A stretch of DNA of 44,704 bases, taken from IMG/VR virus record IMGVR_UViG_3300038738_000028, positions 1-44,704 of that record. One strand, given 5' to 3'. Shown in pieces: positions 1-44,704 of this stretch. The notes beneath the pieces are model-generated. The model was given only the letters and a program-made list of their open reading frames with translations. It was not told the DNA's origin and searched no databases. The stretch's first letter is position 1, and every line of letters starts with the position of its first letter. The stretch comes from a virus. The position numbers and the translations under genes were made by a program.

Positions 1-294
1 TTATTCCCCCTTCAAATCTTCGGCTGTAAGAATTGGTAAATCTTTGGTTAAATTTTCCGCTGTACCGCCGCCGTTTTGTTCATTATAGATTTTTCTTAAT
101 TTTGCCAATAAATCTTCGTCAACTTTCATTTTTAAAATCATTGCTATGCTTTGCAGGGCGTATATTGCCGCCCGTGCTTCATTTGCATTAATTTTATCCT
201 TATAGTCAAATTCAGTAACTAATTTATAATAAACGTGTGCGGCTTCCTGCCGGAGTTCGTCAAAATTCTTTAAGTCCAGTTTCTTCCTCAACAT
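1..294 (-). CDS. Hypothetical protein of the left element, 97 aa
   Basis: I do not recognise this protein. It is a soluble, charged, mostly helical 97-residue protein with no signal peptide or membrane segment and an acidic C-terminus. The ATG is preceded by AAGGAGG at good spacing (about 302-308). It is the last gene visible of the minus-strand series of Region A and its stop codon is the first base triplet of the window, so further genes of the series may lie outside. A packaging or regulatory role cannot be argued from sequence alone. Confidence 0.6.
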   Translation of the reverse strand: MLRKKLDLKNFDELRQEAAHVYYKLVTEFDYKDKINANEARAAIYALQSIAMILKMKVDEDLLAKLRKIYNEQNGGGTAENLTKDLPILTAEDLKGE

Positions 295-446
295 ACTAAA
301 ACCTCCTTTTTCCTATTGTAACAAACCTGTTTAAATGAAAAGCTAATCCCCCGGCTACGCTGGTGGTCATGACTTAGGAAGGGAATATCCCTTTATTTGG
401 CATATTCCCAACCCTTATATAAATCCATAAAATGGAGTAGGAGAGA
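295..446. other. Intergenic gap with a hairpin
   Basis: No gene is visible. The gap carries an inverted repeat (GGGAATAT at 381-388 and ATATTCCC at 402-409) that can fold into a hairpin but is not followed by a T-run on either strand. One imperfect copy of the CCCCGGCTA motif lies near 349-356. Confidence 0.4.
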
Positions 447-737
447 CTAAATTTCAACCCCCAATTTTGGGAGTGCAGTTTCAAGTCTGGCAATCCTTTC
501 CTCTGGTGTTTCGTTGGCTTTCTTTGCGGCTAACTCTGCAATTGCTTCCTGTTCCTTCCTTTTTACCGTTTCTGCCTGTTCCCTCTGTATTGCCTTAACT
601 TGGAAATTATATCTACTTTCCAATTCACCTTTTATTTTCCTTGCGGCGTTTCCGTCAAAAGTCATGATTGTGGGATATACTTTCATAAAGTTTTCTAAAT
701 CCTTTTCCGTTTGTTTTAGCAATTTATTCCTGTCCAT
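447..737 (-). CDS. Hypothetical coiled-coil protein, 96 aa
   Basis: The protein is rich in Glu, Lys, Ala and Gln, and the second half looks like a continuous charged helix suited to coiled-coil pairing. No enzyme motif is visible. I chose the ATG at 737 because GGGGGTG sits seven bases upstream; a longer frame starts with TTG at 752. The start lies inside the end of the preceding gene, which implies translational coupling. Function unknown. Confidence 0.55.
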   Translation of the reverse strand: MDRNKLLKQTEKDLENFMKVYPTIMTFDGNAARKIKGELESRYNFQVKAIQREQAETVKRKEQEAIAELAAKKANETPEERIARLETALPKLGVEI

Positions 738-966
738 TAGTTTCACCCCCAATTTTGCCCTTGTTCATATATACACCGCTTTTGTAACTGGCGTTTTCAA
801 TGCCGCTTAATGCTTCAATTTGTGCGGCTTTTTCTTCATTGGTCAATTCTTTATTTCTCAATATGGAAAGAATCTTTTCCGGGTCTTTCTCCATTGCCCT
901 ATGCAATTTATTACTTTCTGCCTTAGTGTGTAGCTTTGTTCCGTTTCTCGTTGTATTAATTGCCAT
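724..966 (-). CDS. Hypothetical protein, 80 aa
   Basis: A small basic-to-neutral protein with no recognised domain. It has a good ribosome binding site (AAAGGGGG before the ATG). It overlaps the XRE gene upstream by 11 bases and the coiled-coil gene downstream by 14 bases, so the three are almost certainly co-translated. The middle part (ending NKELTNEEKAAQ) resembles a helical segment. Function unknown. Confidence 0.55.
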   Translation of the reverse strand: MAINTTRNGTKLHTKAESNKLHRAMEKDPEKILSILRNKELTNEEKAAQIEALSGIENASYKSGVYMNKGKIGGETNGQE

Positions 967-1189
967 ACTGTAAACCCCCTTTTAAAATCTCCAAAATGTG
1001 ATTTCTATTACTCAATAGCATTTCAGCAGATAGCCCAAAATAGCTTTGTAGCTTGTCCCGTATCTTCTTTGACGGGTTGAAATATCCGCTTTCAATTCCT
1101 CTATAATAATATTCAGATATTCCCAATGCCGCCGCTGTATCTGCTTGCGTCATTTCCAATTCAATCCTAATTAGTTCCATATTCTTCAT
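956..1189 (-). CDS. XRE-family HTH regulator, 77 aa
   Basis: This is a single-domain helix-turn-helix protein of the Cro/C1 (XRE) type. The scanning helix pair lies at about residues 11-32 (MTQADTAAALGISEYYYRGI) and is followed by the usual short dimerisation helices, ending in FGLSAEMLL. The ATG has AGGAGG upstream. A consensus minus-strand promoter (TTGCTT-17-TATAAT, 1,240-1,268) lies just upstream. It leads the small operon 1-1,189, and a role in controlling replication or excision of the left element is inferred from position only. Confidence 0.8.
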   Translation of the reverse strand: MKNMELIRIELEMTQADTAAALGISEYYYRGIESGYFNPSKKIRDKLQSYFGLSAEMLLSNRNHILEILKGGLQYGN

Positions 1190-1239
1190 TGGGCAAACCT
1201 CCTATTTATAAACCATTTCTGCAACATTCTTACTATTAC

Positions 1240-1268
1240 ATTATACTACAAAATTTGCGAAAAAGCAA
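1240..1268 (-). promoter_or_regulatory. Sigma-A promoter of the XRE operon
   Basis: On the minus strand: TTGCTT (-35), a 17-base spacer, TATAAT (-10). It is about 50 bases upstream of the XRE start codon and points at it. Confidence 0.65.
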
Positions 1269-1278
1269 CAATTACCTC

Positions 1279-1308
1279 TTTACAAATCAATTCTATTCGT
1301 GTTATAAT
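1279..1308 (+). promoter_or_regulatory. Divergent sigma-A promoter pointing into the origin region
   Basis: On the plus strand: TTTACA (-35), an 18-base spacer, TATAAT (-10, 1,303-1,308). No plus-strand gene follows before the iterons at 1,550, so it may make an untranslated transcript running toward the ATPase gene in antisense. Confidence 0.5.
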
Positions 1309-1549
1309 ATATGGTTTGTTTTGTAACAAAGGATTGGTATTTTACTAATCGTGTGCCTTGCAGATATGATTTTTCATTGATACGCTTGCGGCTGTAGGTT
1401 TTCTGTACGCCCCTGATTGAAAGTCTTACGCCCCCGGCTATAAATGTATGCCGTTTTAAGCAACTGGAAAATTTTTATAAAAGAAGGGGGTGGGGGGTAT
1501 ATTCTGGAAAATCCCCCGGCTATAAAAAAGCAATAATCCTATACCCGTC

Positions 1550-1831
1550 AATGAGTGAGCAAGTACCTCAAACCCTTGTGGCTGTAGCTGGAATGAACTT
1601 GCTCATATATGAGTAAGTAGGATTAAATGAGTAAGTAAACAACGCCGTTTTCGATATTTCTTCCAGTGGATTGGAAAATCTATTTGCTCATTCTGTTTCA
1701 CTTGCTCATACATGAGCAAGTTAGTTAAACCATTACTACTACTATATTACAGGTACTTACTCACTCATTCCCATGTATAATGAGAAAATGAGCAAGTGCT
1801 TCCATGCAATTGGAAATTAACACTTACTCAT
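1550..1831. repeat. Iteron cluster, probable replication origin of the left element
   Basis: The decamer ATGAGCAAGT / ATGAGTAAGT occurs about nine times in both orientations, including near 1,553-1,564, 1,597-1,606 (reverse), 1,609-1,618, 1,627-1,636, 1,683-1,691 (reverse, partial), 1,700-1,709 (reverse), 1,712-1,721, 1,754-1,767 (reverse), 1,788-1,797 and 1,822-1,831 (reverse). Several form head-to-head pairs, such as 1,700-1,721. The cluster lies directly beside the gene for a RepA-like ATPase, which is the arrangement of iteron-controlled origins. Function is inferred. Confidence 0.6.
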
Positions 1832-1839
1832 TCCTAAAA

Positions 1840-3249
1840 TTATTCCACAATATACCAATACGTCTTTCCGTCTGCCTGTCCTTTTCTAATGAATTTTTTA
1901 TCCTGCAATGCTTTTCTCGCCCGTCTGTAGGTGATATTTGAAATGCCCATTGCCGTTACTGCCTGTTCCAGTAATTGCGACCACATACCAACGCCCTCGG
2001 CTTCCTGTAGACACTTCAAAATAAGGCTTTCGGCTTTGTCCTGCTTGTTTTCTTCCTTCCCGGCAAACTCGTTTTCCATTTCTTCCCGGCTTTTTGTCAT
2101 GGTACAAAATTTTATAGCCGGGGCTTTTACCATTTTTCCCCTTGCGTCCAATCCTAATTCTACGCCCTCAATTGAAAAGGCAAATCCAGTTTCTTCCTTG
2201 GCATGGTTGCTCTTATTATGGTAGACATTAACAACGCCTGTTTCCTTGTCCTTTTGCAGTTCTAAAACACTTCTACAAGCTGAATACCAATCGTTGCTAC
2301 CTTGTACCCTGCCGTTACCGCTTGCGGAATTGCTTTTGTTGTTATGGTGTAGGACTATGACGGCAACATTATATTTTTCCGCTAACCGCTTTAAATGGTT
2401 AATAGCCGCCCTTACGTCCTTACTATTGTTTATGTCCTGCCCGTCCTTCAATATATCTTTCAGTATGTCAAATACCACAACGTCATAACTTCCCACCTTA
2501 ACAAAGTTTTCCAAATCGGGGTGGTCATACTCAAAACGCTGGTTTATGCCGTCCAGTAGGTGAAAATTATCCGGGTTATACCCTGCCGCCCTTAAACGTG
2601 GGAAAAATGCGTCTGAAACGGTGTCCTCTGTATTAACATATAAAACCTTTCCCCCGGCTATAAAATTCAAATGCGGCAATTCTCCGCCGCCCTGTGAGAT
2701 TTTTGCACATAGGGTCAAGGTCAATAGACTTTTAGCGGAACTTGTTCCGGCATGGATTAAATTTACATTGTTCTTGTAAATATATGGCAGCAATATAAAC
2801 TCTATCGCCTTCATTTCAACCTTGGATAAATCTGTTAGTTTTAGTGTCCCGGCTTTGGCTTTTTCCTGCTTATTATAGCCGGGGTTTTCTTTTTCCTGTT
2901 TTGGCGGTGTTGAGACATAAACACCACTAATTAAATCTATTCCCAATTTCTTGAATATGTCGGTTGTGCTATGTCCATTGTCACAATCAACATATATCCT
3001 GTAATTATCTCCCATTTCTCTGTACCTAAAATTAGCATGACTACCGCATATTGGGCATTTACTGTTTGGCATATATTCAGCTTGCCATTCTTCAAAAGTG
3101 GGGTAGTCCTCGTTCTCAAAAATTGAAAGTGGGTCAAGGTTGAGTTTTGCCCGTTTTTGTGTTATACTTTTATTATGAATTACATAAAAATTTCTTGCTG
3201 TTGCCGCATTGTCGCCCAAACAATAAGCGGCATTTTTATTAGTCTGCAT
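1840..3249 (-). CDS. RepA-like AAA/RecA-fold replicative ATPase with zinc finger
   Basis: The protein (469 aa) has an N-terminal zinc-finger region (CPICG, then a C..GH pair, about residues 65-95), a RecA-type ATPase core and a C-terminal winged-helix-like segment. In the core a Walker A (HAGTSSAKS) is followed by a Walker B (VVVFDIL) and a VIVLHHNNK strand, the layout of AAA_25/RepA-like helicases that unwind plasmid and satellite origins. The Walker A has Ala where Gly is usual before Lys, as seen in this family. I chose ATG 3,249 (GGAGG seven bases upstream). It sits beside an iteron cluster, so origin opening or helicase activity for the left element is the likely job. Confidence 0.75.
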   Translation of the reverse strand: MQTNKNAAYCLGDNAATARNFYVIHNKSITQKRAKLNLDPLSIFENEDYPTFEEWQAEYMPNSKCPICGSHANFRYREMGDNYRIYVDCDNGHSTTDIFKKLGIDLISGVYVSTPPKQEKENPGYNKQEKAKAGTLKLTDLSKVEMKAIEFILLPYIYKNNVNLIHAGTSSAKSLLTLTLCAKISQGGGELPHLNFIAGGKVLYVNTEDTVSDAFFPRLRAAGYNPDNFHLLDGINQRFEYDHPDLENFVKVGSYDVVVFDILKDILKDGQDINNSKDVRAAINHLKRLAEKYNVAVIVLHHNNKSNSASGNGRVQGSNDWYSACRSVLELQKDKETGVVNVYHNKSNHAKEETGFAFSIEGVELGLDARGKMVKAPAIKFCTMTKSREEMENEFAGKEENKQDKAESLILKCLQEAEGVGMWSQLLEQAVTAMGISNITYRRARKALQDKKFIRKGQADGKTYWYIVE

Positions 3250-3532
3250 TTTCATTACCTCCTGTTAATTGCTTGTTTTTTGCTTCTTCAACACGTTTTT
3301 TCATTTCTTCCCGTCTTGCTACCAATGCCGCTTGTTCTTCCTTGAATTTCCTTGCTTCTTCGCCTATCTGCTTGGCAACTTCTTCCGTCACATAGAATAC
3401 ACCGTCAATCATGGTACATTCAGCGTCCCCCTTGATACATTTATTAAATACTGTGTTTGGGTGACACCCTGCGATTTCTGCCGCTTCCTGCTTTGTTAAT
3501 AATCCCTGTTCTCTATACTTATTTGTCCTCAT
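3239..3532 (-). CDS. HTH DNA-binding protein with coiled-coil tail, 97 aa
   Basis: Residues 10-50 (LLTKQEAAEIAGCHPNTVF onward) form an excisionase/MerR-like helix-turn-helix with a short wing (IDGVFYVTEEV). The rest is a Lys/Glu/Ala-rich helix likely to coil. The ATG has GGAGG upstream. It overlaps the replication ATPase downstream by 11 bases, so the two are co-expressed. It may be the excisionase of the left element or a partner of the ATPase in origin binding; sequence does not decide. Confidence 0.65.
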   Translation of the reverse strand: MRTNKYREQGLLTKQEAAEIAGCHPNTVFNKCIKGDAECTMIDGVFYVTEEVAKQIGEEARKFKEEQAALVARREEMKKRVEEAKNKQLTGGNENAD

Positions 3533-3607
3533 TTTTCTACCTCCAATTTAATTTATTCCCTGCCGTTATGCGGTGGGTATGTAAGGAAGGGTTAACCCTT
3601 CCCGTTG

Positions 3608-3742
3608 TTATTCTTCAAGAATCCAAAGTATTTCCATTGCGTCAAGTTCGGTTGCAATTGGATTGTTTTCATTGTTTAATGCCCTTTCCATACTGCGTTG
3701 AGAAATTTCCTTTAATCTTTCAATCTGTTCTTTCCTTGTCAT
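3608..3742 (-). CDS. Small hypothetical protein, 44 aa
   Basis: A short frame starting MTRKEQIERLKEISQR and ending ILWILEE. GGAGGT stands seven bases before its ATG, the reading frame is clean, and it fits between the promoter at 3,826-3,854 and the HTH gene. It is an amphipathic helical protein with an acidic end. Function unknown. Confidence 0.55.
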   Translation of the reverse strand: MTRKEQIERLKEISQRSMERALNNENNPIATELDAMEILWILEE

Positions 3743-3796
3743 TTCGTGACCTCCATTCGGTTTTATAATAGGGGTTAATTTTTAACCTCTTTAATT

Positions 3797-3854
3797 GCAT
3801 ACAAAGGTTTGTACGCTATATTTATATTATACAATACTTTGTACGCAAAATCAA
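3797..3854 (-). promoter_or_regulatory. Promoter with repeated operator for the replication operon
   Basis: The minus strand has TTGATT, a 17-base spacer and TATAAT (3,826-3,854). TTTGTACGC occurs as a direct repeat at 3,808-3,816 and 3,838-3,846, flanking the -10 box. The first copy is also half of an inverted repeat (GCATACAAA-GG-TTTGTACGC, 3,797-3,816). This is a repressor-controlled promoter; a candidate binder is one of the HTH proteins of the same element. Confidence 0.6.
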
Positions 3855-3975
3855 CAACAACCGATATACAAATCAATTTAATTTCTTACATAATATTACA
3901 GCTATATAAAGCGGCGGAATTGCTATTTTATAGCCGGGGGGCATAAGTAAAGCCGGGGATTGAGATTGCCCCGGC

Positions 3976-4005
3976 TATAAAAAAGGGGTCAAATATTAAC
4001 CCCTT
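3976..4005 (-). terminator. Intrinsic terminator after the HNH-AP2 gene
   Basis: On the minus strand the arms AAGGGGT and ACCCCTT (3,983-4,005) are followed by six T. It overlaps the stop codon of the HNH gene and separates the integrase transcript from the replication operon. Confidence 0.7.
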
Positions 4006-4525
4006 AATCTTGCTTTGTCCTTGCTTGATATGAAAATGGGTGGTACTCCGCTTTTGCCTTTAAATATTCAGCGTGTGCCGCTTCGGGTGTGTCAAAATAC
4101 CCTAAATACTTTGTTTTGCCGTCAACGGTTATCCTCGCCCGGTACTTGCCTTTATACTCACCAACTCCGGGCAAATTGCTTTTGTTTTGTTTCCGTGTAC
4201 CCTTCATATTTTGATTGTTTTCGCTGTGTGTGGCTATTCTCAAATTCCAACGGCAATTATTCAAGCCGTTCCAATTTTTATGGTCAACCTCAATTTTGGG
4301 GTCTGTAACGCCCATAATTAAGCGGTGTAGCCTTATTTGCTTTCCGTCAACATTAGTCATTACATACCATGTGTCGCCCCTCTCGGAATATCTGGCTGTC
4401 CATGTACCGGGTACGCTGTCCGCTTTAGGTAAATCCTCCGCACTGATTAAAGCATACATTTGTTGTCCTTTTCCCATAACCCATATATAACAAGTGTCGT
4501 CTATTATTTCATAGTAATTTTTCAC
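4004..4525 (-). CDS. HNH homing endonuclease with AP2 DNA-binding domain
   Basis: The middle third (about residues 62-108) is an HNH_3-type nuclease: RLHRLIM, then IEVDHKNWNGLNNCRWNL, then the RIATHSENNQN helix. The last 60 residues form an AP2/ERF-like sheet (GKYRARITVDGKTKYLGYFD, then AHAEYLKAK). This nuclease-AP2 pair is typical of free-standing phage homing endonucleases. It starts with GTG inside the integrase stop (GTGA overlap), so it is coupled to the integrase. Whether it cuts an integration site, spreads itself, or helps the recombinase is not shown. Confidence 0.8.
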   Translation of the reverse strand: MKNYYEIIDDTCYIWVMGKGQQMYALISAEDLPKADSVPGTWTARYSERGDTWYVMTNVDGKQIRLHRLIMGVTDPKIEVDHKNWNGLNNCRWNLRIATHSENNQNMKGTRKQNKSNLPGVGEYKGKYRARITVDGKTKYLGYFDTPEAAHAEYLKAKAEYHPFSYQARTKQD

Positions 4526-5514
4526 CGCTTCGCCCCTTTCTTTGGTATATTAATATAATTGCCTTTTTCTCTGCTAATAGTCTCTAACGGGTTAAAATCG
4601 TCAAAATTCCGCTTTAAATCGTCACTAAACATATTCACATATTCCCGGACGGTTTCAATACTTGAATGTCCCAATACCTTTTGAAGCCGGAATATATCGC
4701 CGCCGTTTAATATCCAGTTCTTGGCGAATGTGTGACGGAACAGGTGAAGGGAAGTTTTGGTAACTCCACGCAGTTTGTTATATCTGGAAATGGCATGTTT
4801 ACAGGAATTTTCGTCCAGTTTGCCGCCGTATGAATTGCAGAATAAAAAGTCGTCCGCTTCGCCGTTTCTGATACCCATATATTCAATTAAAACCTTTGTT
4901 ATGGTCTTGGATAGGGGTAAATGACGTTCCCGGCGTGACTTACCATGTTTGATTTTTACAACTGCTTCATTAATTAAAATGTCCTCAATTCTGATATTAA
5001 CAAACTCACCGACACGAACACCCGTTGCAAGTAGAAAATTGACCGTTACCCAATTCCTATATTCTGCAAAATCCTTCATATTAGGCTTTTCCAGTAATAG
5101 CCTTAATTCATGTTCTGAATAGGTTTCTTTCATTTTCTTATCTGCTTTTATCAGCATTATTTTGAAGTGGGGACAATAACCCAATGATTGCCAATAGTAC
5201 ACAAACGCCCTAACAGCCCGTAAAGAGGTATTAACGGTTATGTCGTTTACTTCGGTTTCCTCTTTTAAATGCAATATATAATTGTCTATTGTGGGTTTTG
5301 TGATTTCTCCAATGTGTTTAATGCTTATGCTTTCAAGAAATGTTTCAAACTTGGTAAAATAGGCTTGATAATAAACAAGCGTTTTTTCTGCCAAATTCTT
5401 AATTTTGCAATGTGTGGTGAACTCCTTAAATCCCTCTTTAAGTGTTTTTTCTTCCGTTGTTTTCTGTTGAATTGATAGTTTTTGTCTTGCCATATGGTAC
5501 ACACGACCCCTCAT
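4522..5514 (-). CDS. Tyrosine recombinase (integrase) of the left element
   Basis: A 330-residue phage/ICE-type integrase. An N-terminal SAM-like core-binding domain (about 30-120) precedes the catalytic domain, which has the Arg box (TGVRVGE), a Lys-bearing beta hairpin (KIKHGKSRRERHLPL), HLFRHTF (H-x-x-R), LGHSS and the nucleophile in TVREYVNMF. The start is uncertain: ATG 5,514 lacks a clear ribosome site, while ATG 5,493 or a GTG between them follows GAGGGG. It lies about 80-100 bases from the tRNA-Ser remnant, so the element very likely uses this tRNA as its attachment site. It is coupled to the HNH gene downstream. Confidence 0.9.
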   Translation of the reverse strand: MRGRVYHMARQKLSIQQKTTEEKTLKEGFKEFTTHCKIKNLAEKTLVYYQAYFTKFETFLESISIKHIGEITKPTIDNYILHLKEETEVNDITVNTSLRAVRAFVYYWQSLGYCPHFKIMLIKADKKMKETYSEHELRLLLEKPNMKDFAEYRNWVTVNFLLATGVRVGEFVNIRIEDILINEAVVKIKHGKSRRERHLPLSKTITKVLIEYMGIRNGEADDFLFCNSYGGKLDENSCKHAISRYNKLRGVTKTSLHLFRHTFAKNWILNGGDIFRLQKVLGHSSIETVREYVNMFSDDLKRNFDDFNPLETISREKGNYINIPKKGAKR

Positions 5515-5550
5515 TTTTTATTAAAAAATCGTGTGGATTACAGGGAATGT

Positions 5551-5580
5551 AAAAAGCGTCCCGAAAACCTCGGAACGCTT
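5551..5580 (-). terminator. Intrinsic terminator behind the tRNA-Ser remnant
   Basis: On the minus strand the hairpin AAGCGT-T-CCGA / TCGG-G-ACGCTT (5,554-5,580) is followed by a short T run. It stands directly downstream of the tRNA 3' end, where a tRNA gene's own terminator is expected. Confidence 0.6.
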
Positions 5581-5591
5581 GATATTACTTG

Positions 5592-5655
5592 TGGCGGAGA
5601 GAGAGGGATTCGAACCCTCGGTACGCTATTAACGTACACACGATTTCCAGTCGTG
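5592..5655 (-). tRNA. 3' fragment of tRNA-Ser(GGA); attachment-site remnant
   Basis: Read on the minus strand, this has an anticodon arm (CACGA-CTGGAAA-TCGTG, anticodon GGA, 5,639-5,655), a long variable arm typical of tRNA-Ser, a T arm with GTTCGAATC in its loop region (5,603-5,619), seven acceptor bases, discriminator G and encoded CCA (5,592-5,594). The D arm and 5' acceptor half are absent: the sequence upstream is AT-rich and unrelated. It is therefore not a working tRNA but the half left after an element inserted, with the crossover near the anticodon loop. Confidence 0.8.
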
Positions 5656-5704
5656 ATACCGATTATACTATATTATACTGTATCACCCTGTATTGTAGTC
5701 ATTA

Positions 5705-6140: not shown

Positions 6141-6180
6141 TTGACATTAAATCTTGAATGTAGTATACTTAAATCAAGAT
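6141..6180 (+). promoter_or_regulatory. Strong promoter with overlapping operator for the accessory island
   Basis: TTGACA (6,141-6,146), a 17-base spacer and TATACT (6,164-6,169). An inverted repeat ATCTTGA (6,151-6,157) / TCAAGAT (6,174-6,180) brackets the -10 box, so the promoter is likely repressible. Confidence 0.75.
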
Positions 6181-6206
6181 GACAAATTAAAGCCGAGGTG
6201 AAACAA

Positions 6207-6566
6207 ATGAGGGAATACGTAAATCCAAACAAGTTAATATTTACAGAAGAAATGCAAAATAAGCCATTAGGCGAAGTAAGCGAAATATATAATCCTGTAG
6301 TATGTGTTAAAACTGAGGATGGACTTAAAATAATAGATGGTCACAATAGAGTAAACGCTGCCATTGAATGCAACTTAGAAGTTCCTTATGTGGCAATAGA
6401 AGAAGAAAAATATATCGAACTGCTTGAACTAGGGTTCGATGACATTGAAATAGCTTATGCAATACTAATTGAAAACGGTGAACATGATGCGGCTACAGCC
6501 CTGGATCAACAATTTCCTGGAGCTATGGTGTCTCGAAGGGGGACAGACGCATGGATGAAAATATAA
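6207..6566 (+). CDS. ParB/sulfiredoxin-like domain protein, 119 aa
   Basis: Residues about 10-75 look like a ParB N-terminal-like domain: a first strand (YVNPNKLIFTEE), then VVCVKTEDGLKIIDGHNRVNAAIE, which contains the family's GHNR/G.NR box. No HTH of a full ParB follows; the C-terminal third is a short helical tail. Such stand-alone domains can bind or hydrolyse nucleotides, but none of that is shown here. I prefer ATG 6,207 with GAGGTG six bases upstream over GTG 6,198. It is the first gene of the plus-strand island, behind a strong repressible promoter. Confidence 0.65.
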   Translation: MREYVNPNKLIFTEEMQNKPLGEVSEIYNPVVCVKTEDGLKIIDGHNRVNAAIECNLEVPYVAIEEEKYIELLELGFDDIEIAYAILIENGEHDAATALDQQFPGAMVSRRGTDAWMKI

Positions 6567-6587: not shown

Positions 6588-6797
6588 ATGAAGAGCTATT
6601 GCACACAAAACAACGGGGACTGCACAACGTGCTCACTTGTGAGCTACAACAAGGACTGCATGAATACCCCCATTTGGGGCGGCCGCAGGGAAGGAGCCGG
6701 AAGAAAGCCAACTGGACGAAAGAAAAAAATATACTATGTTACTGATGATGAGAACGCAAAGTTGAGAGAATACCTACAAGAGCTTAGAAGTCAATAA
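6588..6797 (+). CDS. Small Cys-rich protein with GGRREGAGRKP motif, 69 aa
   Basis: The N-terminus has four closely spaced Cys (CTQNNGDCTTCS, then KDC), a pattern seen in tiny clostridial proteins, followed by GGRREGAGRKPTGRKKK and a short helix (DDENAKLREYLQEL) reminiscent of small DNA-binding phage and plasmid proteins. The ATG has GGAGTGG upstream. Its stop codon ends at 6,797, exactly where the omega-RNA hairpin begins, so the IscB unit seems to have inserted just behind it. Function unknown. Confidence 0.65.
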   Translation: MKSYCTQNNGDCTTCSLVSYNKDCMNTPIWGGRREGAGRKPTGRKKKIYYVTDDENAKLREYLQELRSQ

Positions 6798-7011
6798 CCC
6801 ACCACTAAAGTGGCGGGCTTGCAAAAGCCTTTATTGACTAGACTAAGCGAAAGCTACGTTACCTATATCATAACACCTACGAATGTTTACCCTAGTTCGT
6901 AGCTCTGTTGCTTAACTTTAAACAGTTCTGATGGGTAGGAACAGTGAGTTAAGTGTAAAAAGTATAGGTAACATTGTCTAAGGGTACTAACTCCAGAAAG
7001 GAGGACATAAC
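6798..7011 (+). ncRNA. Omega-RNA (HEARO) scaffold of the IscB nuclease
   Basis: The 214 bases before iscB are non-coding and highly structured. Seen directly: a first hairpin CCC-a-CCACT / AGTGG-c-GGG (6,798-6,817); a GAAA-capped AGC/GCT stem (6,846-6,855); a long-range 10-bp perfect pair GTTACCTATA (6,858-6,867) with TATAGGTAAC (6,963-6,972) enclosing CTACGAA/TTCGTAG (6,877-6,902) and CTTAACT/AGTTAAG (6,911-6,953). This size, position and nested layout match the HEARO RNA class, now known as omega-RNA, that guides IscB. In that class the guide is about 16 bases at the RNA 5' end, here 6,782-6,797, that is, flanking phage DNA. Confidence 0.85.
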
Positions 7012-8262
7012 TTGAGAGTATATGTCATTAATCAAAGAAAAGAACCATTAATGCCAACAACGCCTTGTAAAGCAAGAAAACTTTTAAAACAAGGTAAAGT
7101 TAAAGTAGTAAAAAGAGAACCATTTACAATTCAATTATTATACGCAACTGGTGAAACCAAGCAGGATATAACATTAGGTGTAGATGCTGGAAGTAAAATA
7201 ATAGGATTGTCTGCAACCACAGACAAACAAGAATTATTTTCAGCAGAAGTAGAATTGAGAAACGATATTGTAGACTTACTATCTACACGTAGAGAATTCA
7301 GACGTACAAGAAGGAATAGATTAAGGTATAGAAAACCCAGATTTTTAAATCGTGTTTATAGTAAAAATAAAGGTTGGTTAGCACCTTCTGTTGAAAATAA
7401 AATACAAACACATTTAAAAATAATAAGTAAGATACACGAAATTTTGCCTATATCAAAAATAATAATAGAAGTTGCTTCTTTTGATATACAAAAGATTAAA
7501 AATCCCGATATAGAAGGTAAACAATACCAACAAGGAGAGCAATTGGGATTTTGGAATGTAAGAGAATATGTCCTTTGGAGAGATGGATATAAATGTCAAG
7601 GCAAAAAGGGTTGCAAAAATAAAATATTAAATGTACATCATATAGAATCAAGGAAAACTGGTGGAAATTCCCCAAGCAACCTTATTACTTTGTGTGAAAG
7701 TTGCCATAAAGATTATCATGCTGGTAAATTAAAATTAAATTTAAAACGCGGTCAATCGTTTAAAGATGCAGCTTTTATGGGGATTATGAGGTGGACATTT
7801 TATAATAAACTCAAAGAAATATATTCTAATGTAAAAATAACTTATGGATATATTACTAAAAACACTAGAATACAGAATAATCTACCAAAAGAACATAGGA
7901 TTGATGCATTATGTATAAGTGGTAATCCTAATGTTAAAAGATTAGATTATTGGTATTATATTAAGCAAGTAAGAAGACACAATAGACAAATTCATAAAGC
8001 CAATATATTAAAGGGCGGCAAAAAGAAATTAAATCAAGCGCCATATTTAGTAAAAGGATTCAGATTGTTTGACAAGGTAAAATACAAAGGAGAAGAATGT
8101 TTTATATTTGGTAGACGCAGTTCTGGTTATTTTGATTTAAGAAAACTTGATGGTACAGTTATTCATAGGAGTGCCAATTGTAAAGATTTAAAACTTATAA
8201 GCAAGTCAAAAACATTATTATGGGAAAGGAGGATAGATGTGGCTGTTTCCTCACATGACTAA
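7012..8262 (+). CDS. iscB: IscB RNA-guided endonuclease (HNH + split RuvC)
   Basis: This 416-aa protein has the full IscB order. PLMP domain (P12-P15 within residues 1-45); RuvC-I with catalytic D58 (LGVDAGSK); Arg-rich bridge helix (about 93-114, RREFRRTRRNRLRYRKPR); RuvC-II with E153 (IIIEVASFD); HNH insert (about 187-240) with H209/H210, N223 and CESCH, plus C195/C201 for zinc; RuvC-III with D298 (KEHRIDAL); and a C-terminal beta-rich domain. All catalytic residues are present, so it should be active. The start is TTG at 7,012 with AAGGAGG upstream. IscB uses the omega-RNA encoded just upstream to cut double-stranded DNA and is the ancestor group of Cas9. Its site inside a prophage is notable. 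Confidence 0.93.
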   Translation: MRVYVINQRKEPLMPTTPCKARKLLKQGKVKVVKREPFTIQLLYATGETKQDITLGVDAGSKIIGLSATTDKQELFSAEVELRNDIVDLLSTRREFRRTRRNRLRYRKPRFLNRVYSKNKGWLAPSVENKIQTHLKIISKIHEILPISKIIIEVASFDIQKIKNPDIEGKQYQQGEQLGFWNVREYVLWRDGYKCQGKKGCKNKILNVHHIESRKTGGNSPSNLITLCESCHKDYHAGKLKLNLKRGQSFKDAAFMGIMRWTFYNKLKEIYSNVKITYGYITKNTRIQNNLPKEHRIDALCISGNPNVKRLDYWYYIKQVRRHNRQIHKANILKGGKKKLNQAPYLVKGFRLFDKVKYKGEECFIFGRRSSGYFDLRKLDGTVIHRSANCKDLKLISKSKTLLWERRIDVAVSSHD

Positions 8263-8295
8263 AGCCACGTGTCTCCACAGCCACAATTTTATGAA

Positions 8296-8331
8296 AAGCC
8301 TCGGTGATAAACTGGGGCTTAAAAATTTTTT
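8296..8331 (+). terminator. Terminator downstream of iscB
   Basis: AAGCCTC (8,296-8,302) pairs with GGGGCTT (8,314-8,320, one G-T pair), followed by AAAAATTTTTT. It lies outside the inferred right end of the IscB unit and so probably belonged to the Cys-rich gene's operon before insertion. Confidence 0.65.
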
Positions 8332-8352: not shown

Positions 8353-8410
8353 TTGACATTTGTAACGTTTCCGTTATATAATAGACTCGTAAGGTAACGG
8401 AAACGTTACA
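8353..8410 (+). promoter_or_regulatory. Promoter with twin TAACG-N4-CGTTA operators (copy 1)
   Basis: TTGACA (8,353-8,358), 18-base spacer, TATAAT (8,377-8,382). TAACGTTTCCGTTA (8,363-8,376) fills the spacer and TAACGGAAACGTTA (8,395-8,408) lies just after the start of transcription. Each is a dyad, and together they form a perfect 16-bp inverted repeat (8,361-8,376 with 8,395-8,410). Copy 2 at 8,923 shares 39 identical bases. Confidence 0.8.
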
Positions 8411-8433: not shown

Positions 8434-8478
8434 ATGAAAAACGTAATGTCAAGAGCATGGGAAAGGATGATAGTATGA
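8434..8478 (+). other. Possible 14-codon upstream ORF or relic
   Basis: MKNVMSRAWERMIV then stop, overlapping the start of the next gene (GTATGAATG). It resembles the beginning of longer small phage proteins (MKN.M.RAWE type) that has been cut short. It may be a leader peptide coupled to the HTH gene or a relic. Confidence 0.3.
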
Positions 8479-8897
8479 ATGAAAATTTGAAAAAAATATT
8501 GGAGACCGCCGCATCGGGCAAAGGAGACCTCTGGCGCGAAACAGAGGTTGCAGCAAAAATCCTTTTGCGTGGTGGATACGAAGGTCACGAAGAAGACCTG
8601 TCGTATATAGAAGATGTACAGGACTGTCTAGAACTTGAGAAAGTTTTGTCGCAAGGTCAATGGTACTTCCAAGAGGCTGACACATGGAAGTACGAATTTT
8701 GCGAAGAATACGCCCTGAAAAATTTCGTCTTCACATTTGCCGAAGCTGCTGAGATATGGGGACTTTCTGAATCAACTCTCCGGAAAGCCCAGTTTGACGG
8801 CAGGTTCCGCGAAAACGAAACAAGGAAGTCCGGGAAAATTTGGCTGGTTACGCGTCGGGCCATGGAAAGGATATATGGCCCGACGCCGGATAAATAA
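8475..8897 (+). CDS. Protein with C-terminal helix-turn-helix domain, 140 aa
   Basis: The last 50 residues (FTFAEAAEIWGLSESTLRKA, then RKSGKIWLVTRRAMERIYGP) match the small HTH_59-like domain found in Firmicute phages and islands: a recognition-helix pair and a wing that ends in MERIYGP. The first 90 residues are acidic and helical with no known fold. Start ATG 8,475 has AAGGA seven bases upstream; ATG 8,457 is an alternative. It is the first gene behind operator copy 1, so it could be the protein that binds TAACG-N4-CGTTA and controls both copies; that is inference. Confidence 0.7.
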   Translation: MNENLKKILETAASGKGDLWRETEVAAKILLRGGYEGHEEDLSYIEDVQDCLELEKVLSQGQWYFQEADTWKYEFCEEYALKNFVFTFAEAAEIWGLSESTLRKAQFDGRFRENETRKSGKIWLVTRRAMERIYGPTPDK

Positions 8898-8922: not shown

Positions 8923-8979
8923 TTGACATCGTAACGCAAACGTTATATAATAGACTCGTAAGGTAACGGAAACGTTACA
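8923..8979 (+). promoter_or_regulatory. Promoter with twin TAACG-N4-CGTTA operators (copy 2)
   Basis: TTGACA (8,923-8,928), 17-base spacer, TATAAT (8,946-8,951). Operators TAACGCAAACGTTA (8,932-8,945) and TAACGGAAACGTTA (8,964-8,977). Bases 8,941-8,979 are identical to 8,372-8,410, indicating a recent duplication or recombination, or strong selection on the site. Confidence 0.8.
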
Positions 8980-9005
8980 AAAAACAAATCGAGGGAGGAA
9001 TTAAA

Positions 9006-9281: not shown

Positions 9282-9509
9282 ATGTTTAAAGTATTTGATG
9301 AAGCGGTTGTAAATGGAAGGAAATTTGCGATACTGGTTGACGATGAATCTCGTACGGCTTGTGAAGCAGTATGGGATGAACAAAACGGACGTTGGGAGAC
9401 AGATTTCGCATATCCGGCAGTAGGAGTTGACAGTATGGATGTAGCAGCAGAACTTGATTTTGACGGAGCCGAAAAAGCCGGATACAGCTTCAAGCCTAAC
9501 GCAGAGTGA
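9282..9509 (+). CDS. Hypothetical acidic protein, 75 aa
   Basis: An acidic, probably alpha/beta protein (starts MFKVFDEAVVNGRKFAILVD). No recognised domain. AAGGGGG precedes the ATG. It follows the Trp-rich gene in the operator-copy-2 transcript. Function unknown; the same caution about anti-defence roles applies. Confidence 0.65.
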   Translation: MFKVFDEAVVNGRKFAILVDDESRTACEAVWDEQNGRWETDFAYPAVGVDSMDVAAELDFDGAEKAGYSFKPNAE

Positions 9510-9600
9510 CGGGGCGAGCGCCCCGGTAATGCGGGAGCCCGGTCACAACCCCGGGCGATGCAAAAATTACGGTTGGCGGTGAGCCGTGAAAACTGCCATA
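9510..9600 (+). ncRNA. GC-rich structured leader RNA
   Basis: In an otherwise AT-rich region these 90 bases are GC-rich and fold well. GGGGC/GCCCC (9,512-9,525) makes a first hairpin. CCG-g-TAAT (about 9,523-9,530) pairs with ATTACGG (about 9,567-9,573), enclosing GCCCGG/CCGGGC. GGC-ggtga-GCC follows just before the ribosome binding site. No known riboswitch class is recognised. It could be a translational control element of the next gene. Confidence 0.4.
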
Positions 9601-43579: not shown

Positions 43580-44704
43580 ATGAAAGTTCAATCCTATAAA
43601 AGTGGTTCGAAGACCTTCTATTCTTGCCGCTTTTGGTATTATAAAAACGGCCGGAAAAAAAGTAAGTATAAATCAGGTTTTGAGAGAAAAAAAGACGCCG
43701 AGACTTGGGGTATTGATACAAAGAGAAAATTAGAAGGATTGTCTGCAGGTGCTGATGAAATACTCTTAGAAGATTTCTTAGAAATGTGGATAAAATCTAA
43801 GAAAAAGAAATTATCCCCTTCGTCATACAGGGGATACAAAAACAATATAAAACACATAAATGAATATCTAGGGAACACGCCTTTGATAAAAATTAGAACA
43901 ATAGACATACAACATATGATTGACAGCTTGAGAGATGGTGGATTGAAATACAATGCAGTAAAATATATATATAGAAACCTGCATACTGCAATGAATTATG
44001 CAGTAAAAACAGAAATGCTGGACAAAAATCCATGTAAAGGTGTCGAGATTGCGAAAGATGATGAAAAATTTCAAGCTTCCATTTACGATGCTGAAAATCT
44101 TCGTAAGCTTATATTTGCTTTGAGGGAACAGGAACACTATTTATATATTCCTGTTCTCCTTGCTTCTTTTAGAGGACTTAGGCGTGGTGAATGTTTAGGA
44201 CTTCGTTGGTCTGATATTGACTTCAAAAAAGGAGTCGCATATATAAGAAAACAATATATTGTAGAAGAGGGAGAAAAACATTTCCGGAAGGTAAAGACGG
44301 ATGACTCTGAAAGAGTTATTGATATGACAGGATTTGTAGCCGAAGAATTGAAATTATACAAAGAAAAAATGAAAAAAGCTGGCAACATACAAGAATTCGT
44401 TTGCGAAAAAGATGGGAAATTACCGGACCCTTCTCATATTTCGCGGGCATTGAAGAATTTCCAAAAAGCCAACAATTTACCATTGTGCCGATTCCATGAC
44501 CTTAGGCATACTTTTGCAGTGCTTCAACTTGAACATGGAACAGACCTAGACACACTGAAACGGCTTCTTGGGCACAGTAAAATAAGTATTACATCGGATA
44601 TATACTTGCACCAAAACACAACTCTTATAAGAACATCATCTTCAAAAATGGATAATATAATAGATTGGCCAACAAAAAAAGAAAATTCAAAAATGTCACA
44701 ATAA
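43580..44704 (+). CDS. Prophage integrase (tyrosine recombinase), 374 aa
   Basis: Arm-type DNA-binding domain (FYSCRFWYYKNGRKKSKYKS, about 10-50), core-binding domain (LEDFLEMWIKSKKKKLSPSS onward) and catalytic domain with FRGLRRGE (Arg), a Lys hairpin (KVKTDDSERVIDM), CRFHDLRHTF (H-x-x-R), LGHSK and the nucleophile in TSDIYLHQN. AAGGAGGGG before the ATG. It ends at the last base of the window, so the matching attachment site and the intact tRNA-Ser expected beyond it are not visible. Confidence 0.95.
   Translation: MKVQSYKSGSKTFYSCRFWYYKNGRKKSKYKSGFERKKDAETWGIDTKRKLEGLSAGADEILLEDFLEMWIKSKKKKLSPSSYRGYKNNIKHINEYLGNTPLIKIRTIDIQHMIDSLRDGGLKYNAVKYIYRNLHTAMNYAVKTEMLDKNPCKGVEIAKDDEKFQASIYDAENLRKLIFALREQEHYLYIPVLLASFRGLRRGECLGLRWSDIDFKKGVAYIRKQYIVEEGEKHFRKVKTDDSERVIDMTGFVAEELKLYKEKMKKAGNIQEFVCEKDGKLPDPSHISRALKNFQKANNLPLCRFHDLRHTFAVLQLEHGTDLDTLKRLLGHSKISITSDIYLHQNTTLIRTSSSKMDNIIDWPTKKENSKMSQ

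What the first reader, a model, noticed from the sequence alone, without database searches (positions are those of the whole stretch)
6782..8290. Intact IscB with omega-RNA carried in a prophage accessory island
The gene keeps every catalytic residue (D58, E153, HNH histidines, D298) and is led by a well-folded HEARO/omega-RNA scaffold. IscB is usually discussed as an IS200/IS605 accessory in chromosomes; here it lies between the lysis genes and the attachment site of a siphovirus prophage, without TnpA. It may be used by the phage against competing phages or for self-spread.
Basis: partly seen in the sequence, partly recalled or inferred. Interest (0 to 1): 0.8.

Follow-up and report, generated by a model that had tools for sequence, protein, structure and literature searches.

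The report
IscB hitchhiking transposon in a prophage
The prophage carries a complete, ordinary RNA-guided IscB transposon that landed in a small accessory gene and probably moves with a transposase borrowed from its host; its relatives share an unreported-looking feature, an outward-pointing split ribosome-binding site that could keep the genes they land on switched on.

Summary
HEARO/omega-RNA (6790-6991; 159.6 bits, cut-off 83) and a full-length IscB (7012-8262; NCBIfam E=4e-114; RuvC and HNH residues invariant in 38 relatives) form one mobile element with exact borders, 6790-8290, followed by ATGA. A 97%-identical copy lies at an unrelated site in another viral contig.

IscB in phages and without an adjacent TnpA is already reported, and the same clade occurs in at least 126 IMG/VR stretches. 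The element split the last codons of a small accessory gene; its 16-nt guide is that gene's own sequence, so the predicted target is the unoccupied site. No other phage target was found. Best reading: a non-autonomous IS200/IS605-type passenger, moved in trans by a host TnpA and kept by IscB cutting empty sites. In Duodenibacillus the solo-IscB right end is identical over 55 nt to the end of TnpA+TnpB elements.

Unexpected: across the clade a Shine-Dalgarno sequence sits just before the right-end hairpin and ATGA just after it (about 54 nt apart, about 10 when folded), and many copies abut a real start codon. This split ribosome-binding site may rescue the gene hit. It replicated in a second set; expression is untested, and the window's copy has no real gene there.

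The parts
6141..6169 (+). sigma-70-like promoter of the accessory operon into which the element inserted (TTGACA-17-TATACT)
   Evidence: consensus scan, 11 of 12; function inferred
6198..6566 (+). upstream accessory ORF (no Pfam family)
6588..6797 (+). small accessory ORF interrupted by the element; the element supplies a new stop (..LRSQ*). Joining the flanks gives ..YLQELRNEKPR* (native tail 8291-8307)
   Evidence: homologue L012 ends ..KEYLKRLREPSK* with an overlapping terminator, the same layout as the predicted empty site
6774..6789 (+). 16-nt guide of the omega-RNA (CTACAAGAGCTTAGAA) = left flank of the insertion
   Evidence: immediately 5' of the HEARO start; flank differs in every copy
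6790..8290 (+). the mobile element (HEARO + iscB + right-end hairpin)
   Evidence: single blastn match to L003, 6790-8296, 97.5%, flanks unrelated on both sides
6790..6991 (+). HEARO / omega-RNA scaffold
   Evidence: Rfam RF02033, 159.6 bits
7012..8262 (+). iscB, 416 aa: RuvC-I D58, arginine-rich helix, RuvC-II E153, HNH H209/H210, RuvC-III D298, C-terminal TAM-interacting region
8225..8232 (+). Shine-Dalgarno sequence AAAGGAGG inside the 3' end of iscB, facing outwards
   Evidence: clade-wide enrichment
8238..8285 (+). right-end hairpin (subterminal palindrome)
   Evidence: folds at -18.4 kcal/mol, z -4.0 when the SD is left out; inner stem covaries in 21 relatives
8291..8294 (+). ATGA: target / predicted target-adjacent motif, outside the element
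   Evidence: identity of copies with different flanks ends right after ATGA; in many relatives it is the start codon of the interrupted gene
8296..8320 (+). intrinsic terminator of the accessory operon, now downstream of iscB
   Evidence: consensus scan

Best explanation
A complete, non-autonomous ISC (IscB-type IS200/IS605) element, 6790-8290, inserted immediately 5' of an ATGA in the last codons of a small prophage accessory gene, in the direction of that operon. SHOWN by sequence: exact borders; HEARO; IscB with intact catalytic residues; recent mobility; ATGA on the right of every copy with directly observed borders; no TnpA in the record. INFERRED: (1) transposition is by a Y1 TnpA of the bacterial host acting in trans on the end hairpins with target 5'-TCAT (= ATGA on the other strand); (2) the omega-RNA, transcribed from the operon promoter, takes its 16-nt guide from the left flank, so IscB is aimed at the unoccupied allele (guide followed by ATGA) and not at the filled site, where the guide is followed by the element; (3) cutting empty alleles, on replicating phage copies, on a sister prophage or after excision, keeps or copies the element by repair. 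As a clade feature the element also carries an outward split ribosome-binding site (SD, hairpin, ATG) that probably restores translation of the gene whose start codon it separates from its own SD.
For: HEARO and IscB identification. Exact mobility against L003. Nine Duodenibacillus massiliensis solo IscB elements and six TnpA+TnpB elements of the same genome share an identical or near-identical 55-nt right end and abut ATGA (ORFs). Y1 TnpA absent from all 9 first-set viral records and from 26 of 30 in the second set, but present in all 11 host genomes searched. A filled site (ntrB|ntrC) is continuous in four sister genomes, with the insertion point exactly at the start codon. The homologue L012 shows the expected native 3' end of the small ORF. 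Split RBS: SD of 6 nt or more in 47/68 elements against a control mean of 3.6, replicated in 24/41 viral elements against 2.3; linear SD-ATG distance 54, folded 10 in both sets.
Against: No empty site for the window's own insertion was found (searches gave nothing usable). The host and its TnpA are unknown; trans-mobilisation is shown only by shared ends in another lineage. Cleavage, TAM and transcription are untested. In the window the ATG opens only a 17-codon frame, and a competing fold pairs the SD.
Confidence: 0.75

Rival explanations
1. Phage weapon: the prophage has domesticated IscB to cut competing phages or other DNA during superinfection.
For: Intact nuclease and guide RNA in the accessory region of a prophage, inside an operon with its own promoter.
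Against: The guide is the element's own flank; every copy has a different flank and site; no conserved position in phages; the seed plus ATGAAA finds only two chance matches in IMG/VR; many identical copies sit in bacterial chromosomes.
Confidence: 0.06
2. Free-standing homing: IscB spreads without any transposase, by cutting the empty allele and being copied in by repair, like a phage homing endonuclease.
For: No TnpA in the record; guide aimed at the empty allele; would work between co-infecting phages.
Against: 97%-identical copies lie at unrelated sites, which homing into one allele cannot produce; right ends identical to TnpA elements in one genome.
Confidence: 0.15
3. Inert relic: a recent insertion that neither moves nor cuts.
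For: No transposase nearby; no expression data; the window's copy differs from L003 in one inner-stem base of the right-end hairpin.
Against: Full-length frame, all catalytic residues, full-length HEARO; 97.5% identity to a copy elsewhere means recent movement.
Confidence: 0.12
4. About the clade feature: the Shine-Dalgarno sequence at the right end is not for translation of the flanking gene; it reflects IscB codons, transposase recognition or something else.
For: It mostly lies within the iscB frame; it can pair with CCTCC/CTCC stretches in the hairpin.
Against: It falls in different reading frames of iscB in different lineages, and after the stop codon in some; TnpA-bearing elements with the same hairpin and ATGA in Duodenibacillus and in a phage contig lack it; the folded distance to ATG stays near 10 nt in two data sets.
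Confidence: 0.3

Closest known systems
OgeuIscB and other characterised IscB proteins (PDB 7xht, 8csz; NCBIfam NF040563)
   Same: Domain order, catalytic residues, HEARO/omega-RNA immediately upstream with the guide at its 5' end
   Different: 416 aa against about 496 aa; TAM not measured here (right flank ATGA); located in a prophage
HEARO systems from viral fragments (PMC9755519)
   Same: HEARO plus IscB, no adjacent TnpA, viral or prophage context
   Different: Nothing categorical; this is one more example
IS605 elements (TnpA+TnpB) of Duodenibacillus massiliensis (L108-L113)
   Same: 55-nt right end identical or nearly so to that of solo IscB elements; abut ATGA
   Different: Carry TnpA and TnpB; no Shine-Dalgarno sequence before the hairpin
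Split ribosome-binding sites of phage T4 genes 25 and 38 (review PMC3014915)
   Same: A hairpin between SD and AUG brings them to working distance (27 to 11 and 22 to 5 nt)
   Different: Here the SD and hairpin belong to a mobile element and the AUG to the gene it landed on (54 to about 10 nt)

Membership tests
IscB (RNA-guided nuclease) | RuvC split by HNH, catalytic residues present | tested here: met
   D58, E153, H209, H210, D298 invariant in 38 sequences; NF040563 380.8 bits; Foldseek to 8csz E=1e-28
IscB (RNA-guided nuclease) | HEARO/omega-RNA upstream of the gene | tested here: met
   RF02033 6790-6991, whole model, 159.6 bits
IscB (RNA-guided nuclease) | RNA-guided DNA cleavage with a TAM | not testable with these tools
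   needs a cleavage assay; right flank ATGA is the predicted TAM
IS200/IS605-type (ISC) mobile element | precise mobile unit with subterminal hairpins, fixed short target next to one end, no target duplication | tested here: met
   borders 6790/8290; right-end hairpin; ATGA next to all copies with observed borders; empty site
IS200/IS605-type (ISC) mobile element | Y1 TnpA in the element (autonomous form) | tested here: not met
   no PF01797 in the record: non-autonomous
IS200/IS605-type (ISC) mobile element | mobilisation in trans by a host TnpA | tested here: inconclusive
   shared ends with TnpA elements in Duodenibacillus; the window's host is unknown
Anti-phage defence or phage-competition system | guide directed at foreign phages | tested here: not met
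   guide = own flank; no credible target in IMG/VR
Split ribosome-binding site (T4 gene 25 type) | SD, then hairpin, then AUG at effective spacing of about 5-11 nt | tested here: met
   clade level: 32/39 clusters with an SD, folded median 10 nt, replicated; in the window 10 nt but only a 17-codon ORF follows
Split ribosome-binding site (T4 gene 25 type) | drives translation | not testable with these tools
   needs a reporter assay; a competing fold exists in the window

The most novel reading that the evidence does not exclude
IscB elements of this clade are start-codon parasites that pay for their seat: they land between a gene's Shine-Dalgarno sequence and its ATGA start codon and replace the displaced signal with their own SD, held about 10 nt from the ATG by the transposon's end hairpin, which keeps the interrupted gene translated and makes insertions nearly harmless.
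Probability: 0.5. Interest if true: 0.72.

Novelty: new member of a known kind. Interest (0 to 1): 0.48.

Why it matters
The locus itself is one more virus-borne IscB and needs no new category. What it led to is testable. The right end of these elements appears to combine three jobs in about 70 bases: the end of iscB, the transposase hairpin, and a folding ribosome-binding site for whichever gene is hit. If expression tests agree, it would explain how compact RNA-guided elements persist at start codons in gene-dense bacterial and phage genomes without a transposase of their own. It would also be a general design principle for low-cost insertion, known so far (within what I could read) only as isolated split ribosome-binding sites in phage T4.

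Tried and rejected
Empty site of the window's insertion: exact 18-mer across the junction gave two unrelated chance matches (contexts); a degenerate pattern for the protein tail gave none; L003's predicted empty site gave none. Phage relatives through the neighbouring accessory genes 6198-6566 and 8457-8897: none. The whole genome of the record is only the 44.7-kb virus record, so host and host TnpA could not be examined. Autonomous IscB+TnpA element in a Syntrophomonas genome: ends could not be matched to the solo element. L004 and L006 share element and right flank but not left flank; a metagenome assembly artefact is as likely as biology, so it was not used. Right borders outside directly compared copies come from a pattern that itself asks for ATGA/ATGG/GTGA, so those counts are not evidence for ATGA; only copies with different flanks (window/L003, Duodenibacillus, Youngiibacter and others) and the empty site are. 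A right border could not be assigned in 30 of 71 loci of the second set (a few of these are duplicates). Weinberg 2009 and Kapitonov 2016 were not in the library; from memory, HEARO insertions before ATGA/GTGA were noted in the first, so the target itself is probably not new.

Full report
WHAT IS THERE. Rfam's HEARO model matches 6790-6991 on the + strand end to end at 159.6 bits (gathering score 83). ORF 7012-8262 encodes 416 aa that pass the NCBIfam cut-off for IscB by a wide margin, carry Pfam RRXRR and HNH and match solved IscBs by sequence. An AlphaFold2 model built on an alignment of 38 relatives (pLDDT 77, pTM 0.70) finds IscB, IsrB and then Cas9 as its best PDB matches. D58, E153, H209, H210 and D298 are invariant in those 38 sequences.

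BORDERS. A copy 97% identical in protein lies in another viral contig (L003). DNA identity runs from 6790 to 8296 and stops on both sides; the left break is the first HEARO base, the right break lies at ATGA plus chance matches. The element is therefore 6790-8290, and the 16 bases before it (6774-6789) are the guide. The copies L004-L007 give the same left border, and L004-L008 and L010 also have ATGA on the right, mostly at different sites.

INSERTION SITE. The element lies in a small accessory ORF (6588-6797). Joining the flanks gives ..YLQELRNEKPR* running into an intrinsic terminator (8296-8320). A homologue in L012 ends ..KEYLKRLREPSK* with an overlapping terminator, the same layout. The element brings its own stop codon, so the small protein loses only its last five residues (NEKPR) and gains two. 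A strong promoter-like site at 6141-6169 lies upstream of the operon, so omega-RNA and iscB can be transcribed from it (inferred). I did not find the empty site of this very insertion.

HOW IT MOVES. No Y1 transposase is in the record or in eight related viral records, while all eleven bacterial genomes searched that carry relatives have one (counting one weak match in a fragmented genome); of a second set of viral records, 26 of 30 including the window lack it. In Duodenibacillus massiliensis, solo IscB elements with near-identical sequence lie at many sites. Their right end is identical or nearly so over 55 nt to one end of six TnpA+TnpB elements in the same genome, and all abut ATGA (ORFs). 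This is what a passenger mobilised in trans by an IS605-type TnpA would look like. One filled site (ntrB|ntrC) is continuous in four sister genomes, which shows the empty site and places the insertion exactly at the start codon.

WHAT THE GUIDE AIMS AT. The guide is the left flank, so its perfect target is the unoccupied allele followed by ATGA; at the filled site the guide is followed by the element, not by ATGA. No second target exists in the window (best other match has 4 mismatches). In IMG/VR the seed plus ATGAAA occurs twice, in unrelated coding sequence. I therefore reject the anti-competitor reading and keep self-maintenance and spread, as established for this class of nucleases (general knowledge of OMEGA systems; not tested here).

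AN UNEXPECTED CLADE FEATURE. Almost all elements carry AAAGGAGG or a shortened form just 5' of the right-end hairpin. In a fixed window 80 to 38 bases before the ATG, 47 of 68 elements have at least 6 nt of it, against a mean of 3.6 (maximum 10) in windows inside iscB and 2.1 in shuffles. After dereplication, 32 of 39 clusters have at least 5 nt; the linear distance to ATG is 54 nt and the distance with the hairpin closed is 10 nt (median). It is not explained by the protein: it lies in different frames of iscB and sometimes after the stop. It is not explained by the transposase: TnpA elements with the same hairpin lack it. Of 68 elements, 46 abut an ATG that opens at least 60 codons, against 28.8% of ATGR sites in the flanks (p=4e-11). 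Where they do, 15 of 32 left flanks still show the gene's own Shine-Dalgarno sequence, against 0 of 16 elsewhere (one of the 16 is a run of N). I then tested this on viral loci not used to form the idea: 24 of 41 have the Shine-Dalgarno sequence (control mean 2.3, maximum 8), with the same medians 54 and 10, and 16 of 41 abut long frames (21% background, p=0.007). The arrangement is that of the split ribosome-binding sites of T4 genes 25 and 38 (PMC3014915). I propose that it restores translation of the gene hit.

LIMITS. None of this is an expression experiment. In the window the ATG opens only 17 codons, so the feature is present but has no evident client, and when the Shine-Dalgarno sequence is included in the fold a competing structure that pairs it is slightly more stable (-19.4 against -18.4 kcal/mol for the hairpin alone). 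The border pattern used for most loci asks for ATGA, ATGG or GTGA. I found no description of the split site in the library, but most subscription papers are not held.

COMPARED WITH WHAT IS KNOWN. IscB without TnpA in viral or prophage DNA is published (PMC9755519), so the locus is a new member of a known kind. The feature that deserves follow-up belongs to the clade.

Noticed in passing
window 9500-9554 (+): Type-P5 twister ribozyme (RF02684, 62.8 bits) in the accessory region next to the IscB element.
   Followed up: no
window 8353-8410 and 8923-8980 (+): Two perfect sigma-70 promoters each followed by the palindrome GTAACGGAAACGTTAC, probably one regulator controlling two accessory genes.
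   Followed up: no
window 1-5660: A second integrated element seems to adjoin the prophage: tyrosine integrase 4522-5514, HNH endonuclease 4004-4525, helicase-like protein 1840-3255, beside a tRNA-Ser 3'-half-like stretch; another integrase (43580-44704) ends exactly at the record's end.
   Followed up: partly
L004 and L006 (contigs of one metagenome): Same IscB element and about 1.6 kb of the same right flank, but unrelated left flanks, i.e. different guides; assembly chimera or a real one-sided exchange.
   Followed up: no
L149/L150 and L189/L221: Large viral contigs (149 and 254 kb) with two IscB copies of this clade each.
   Followed up: no
L225 (phage contig, 252 kb): A Y1 TnpA gene followed by the same type of right-end hairpin abutting ATGA, without a Shine-Dalgarno sequence.
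   Followed up: partly
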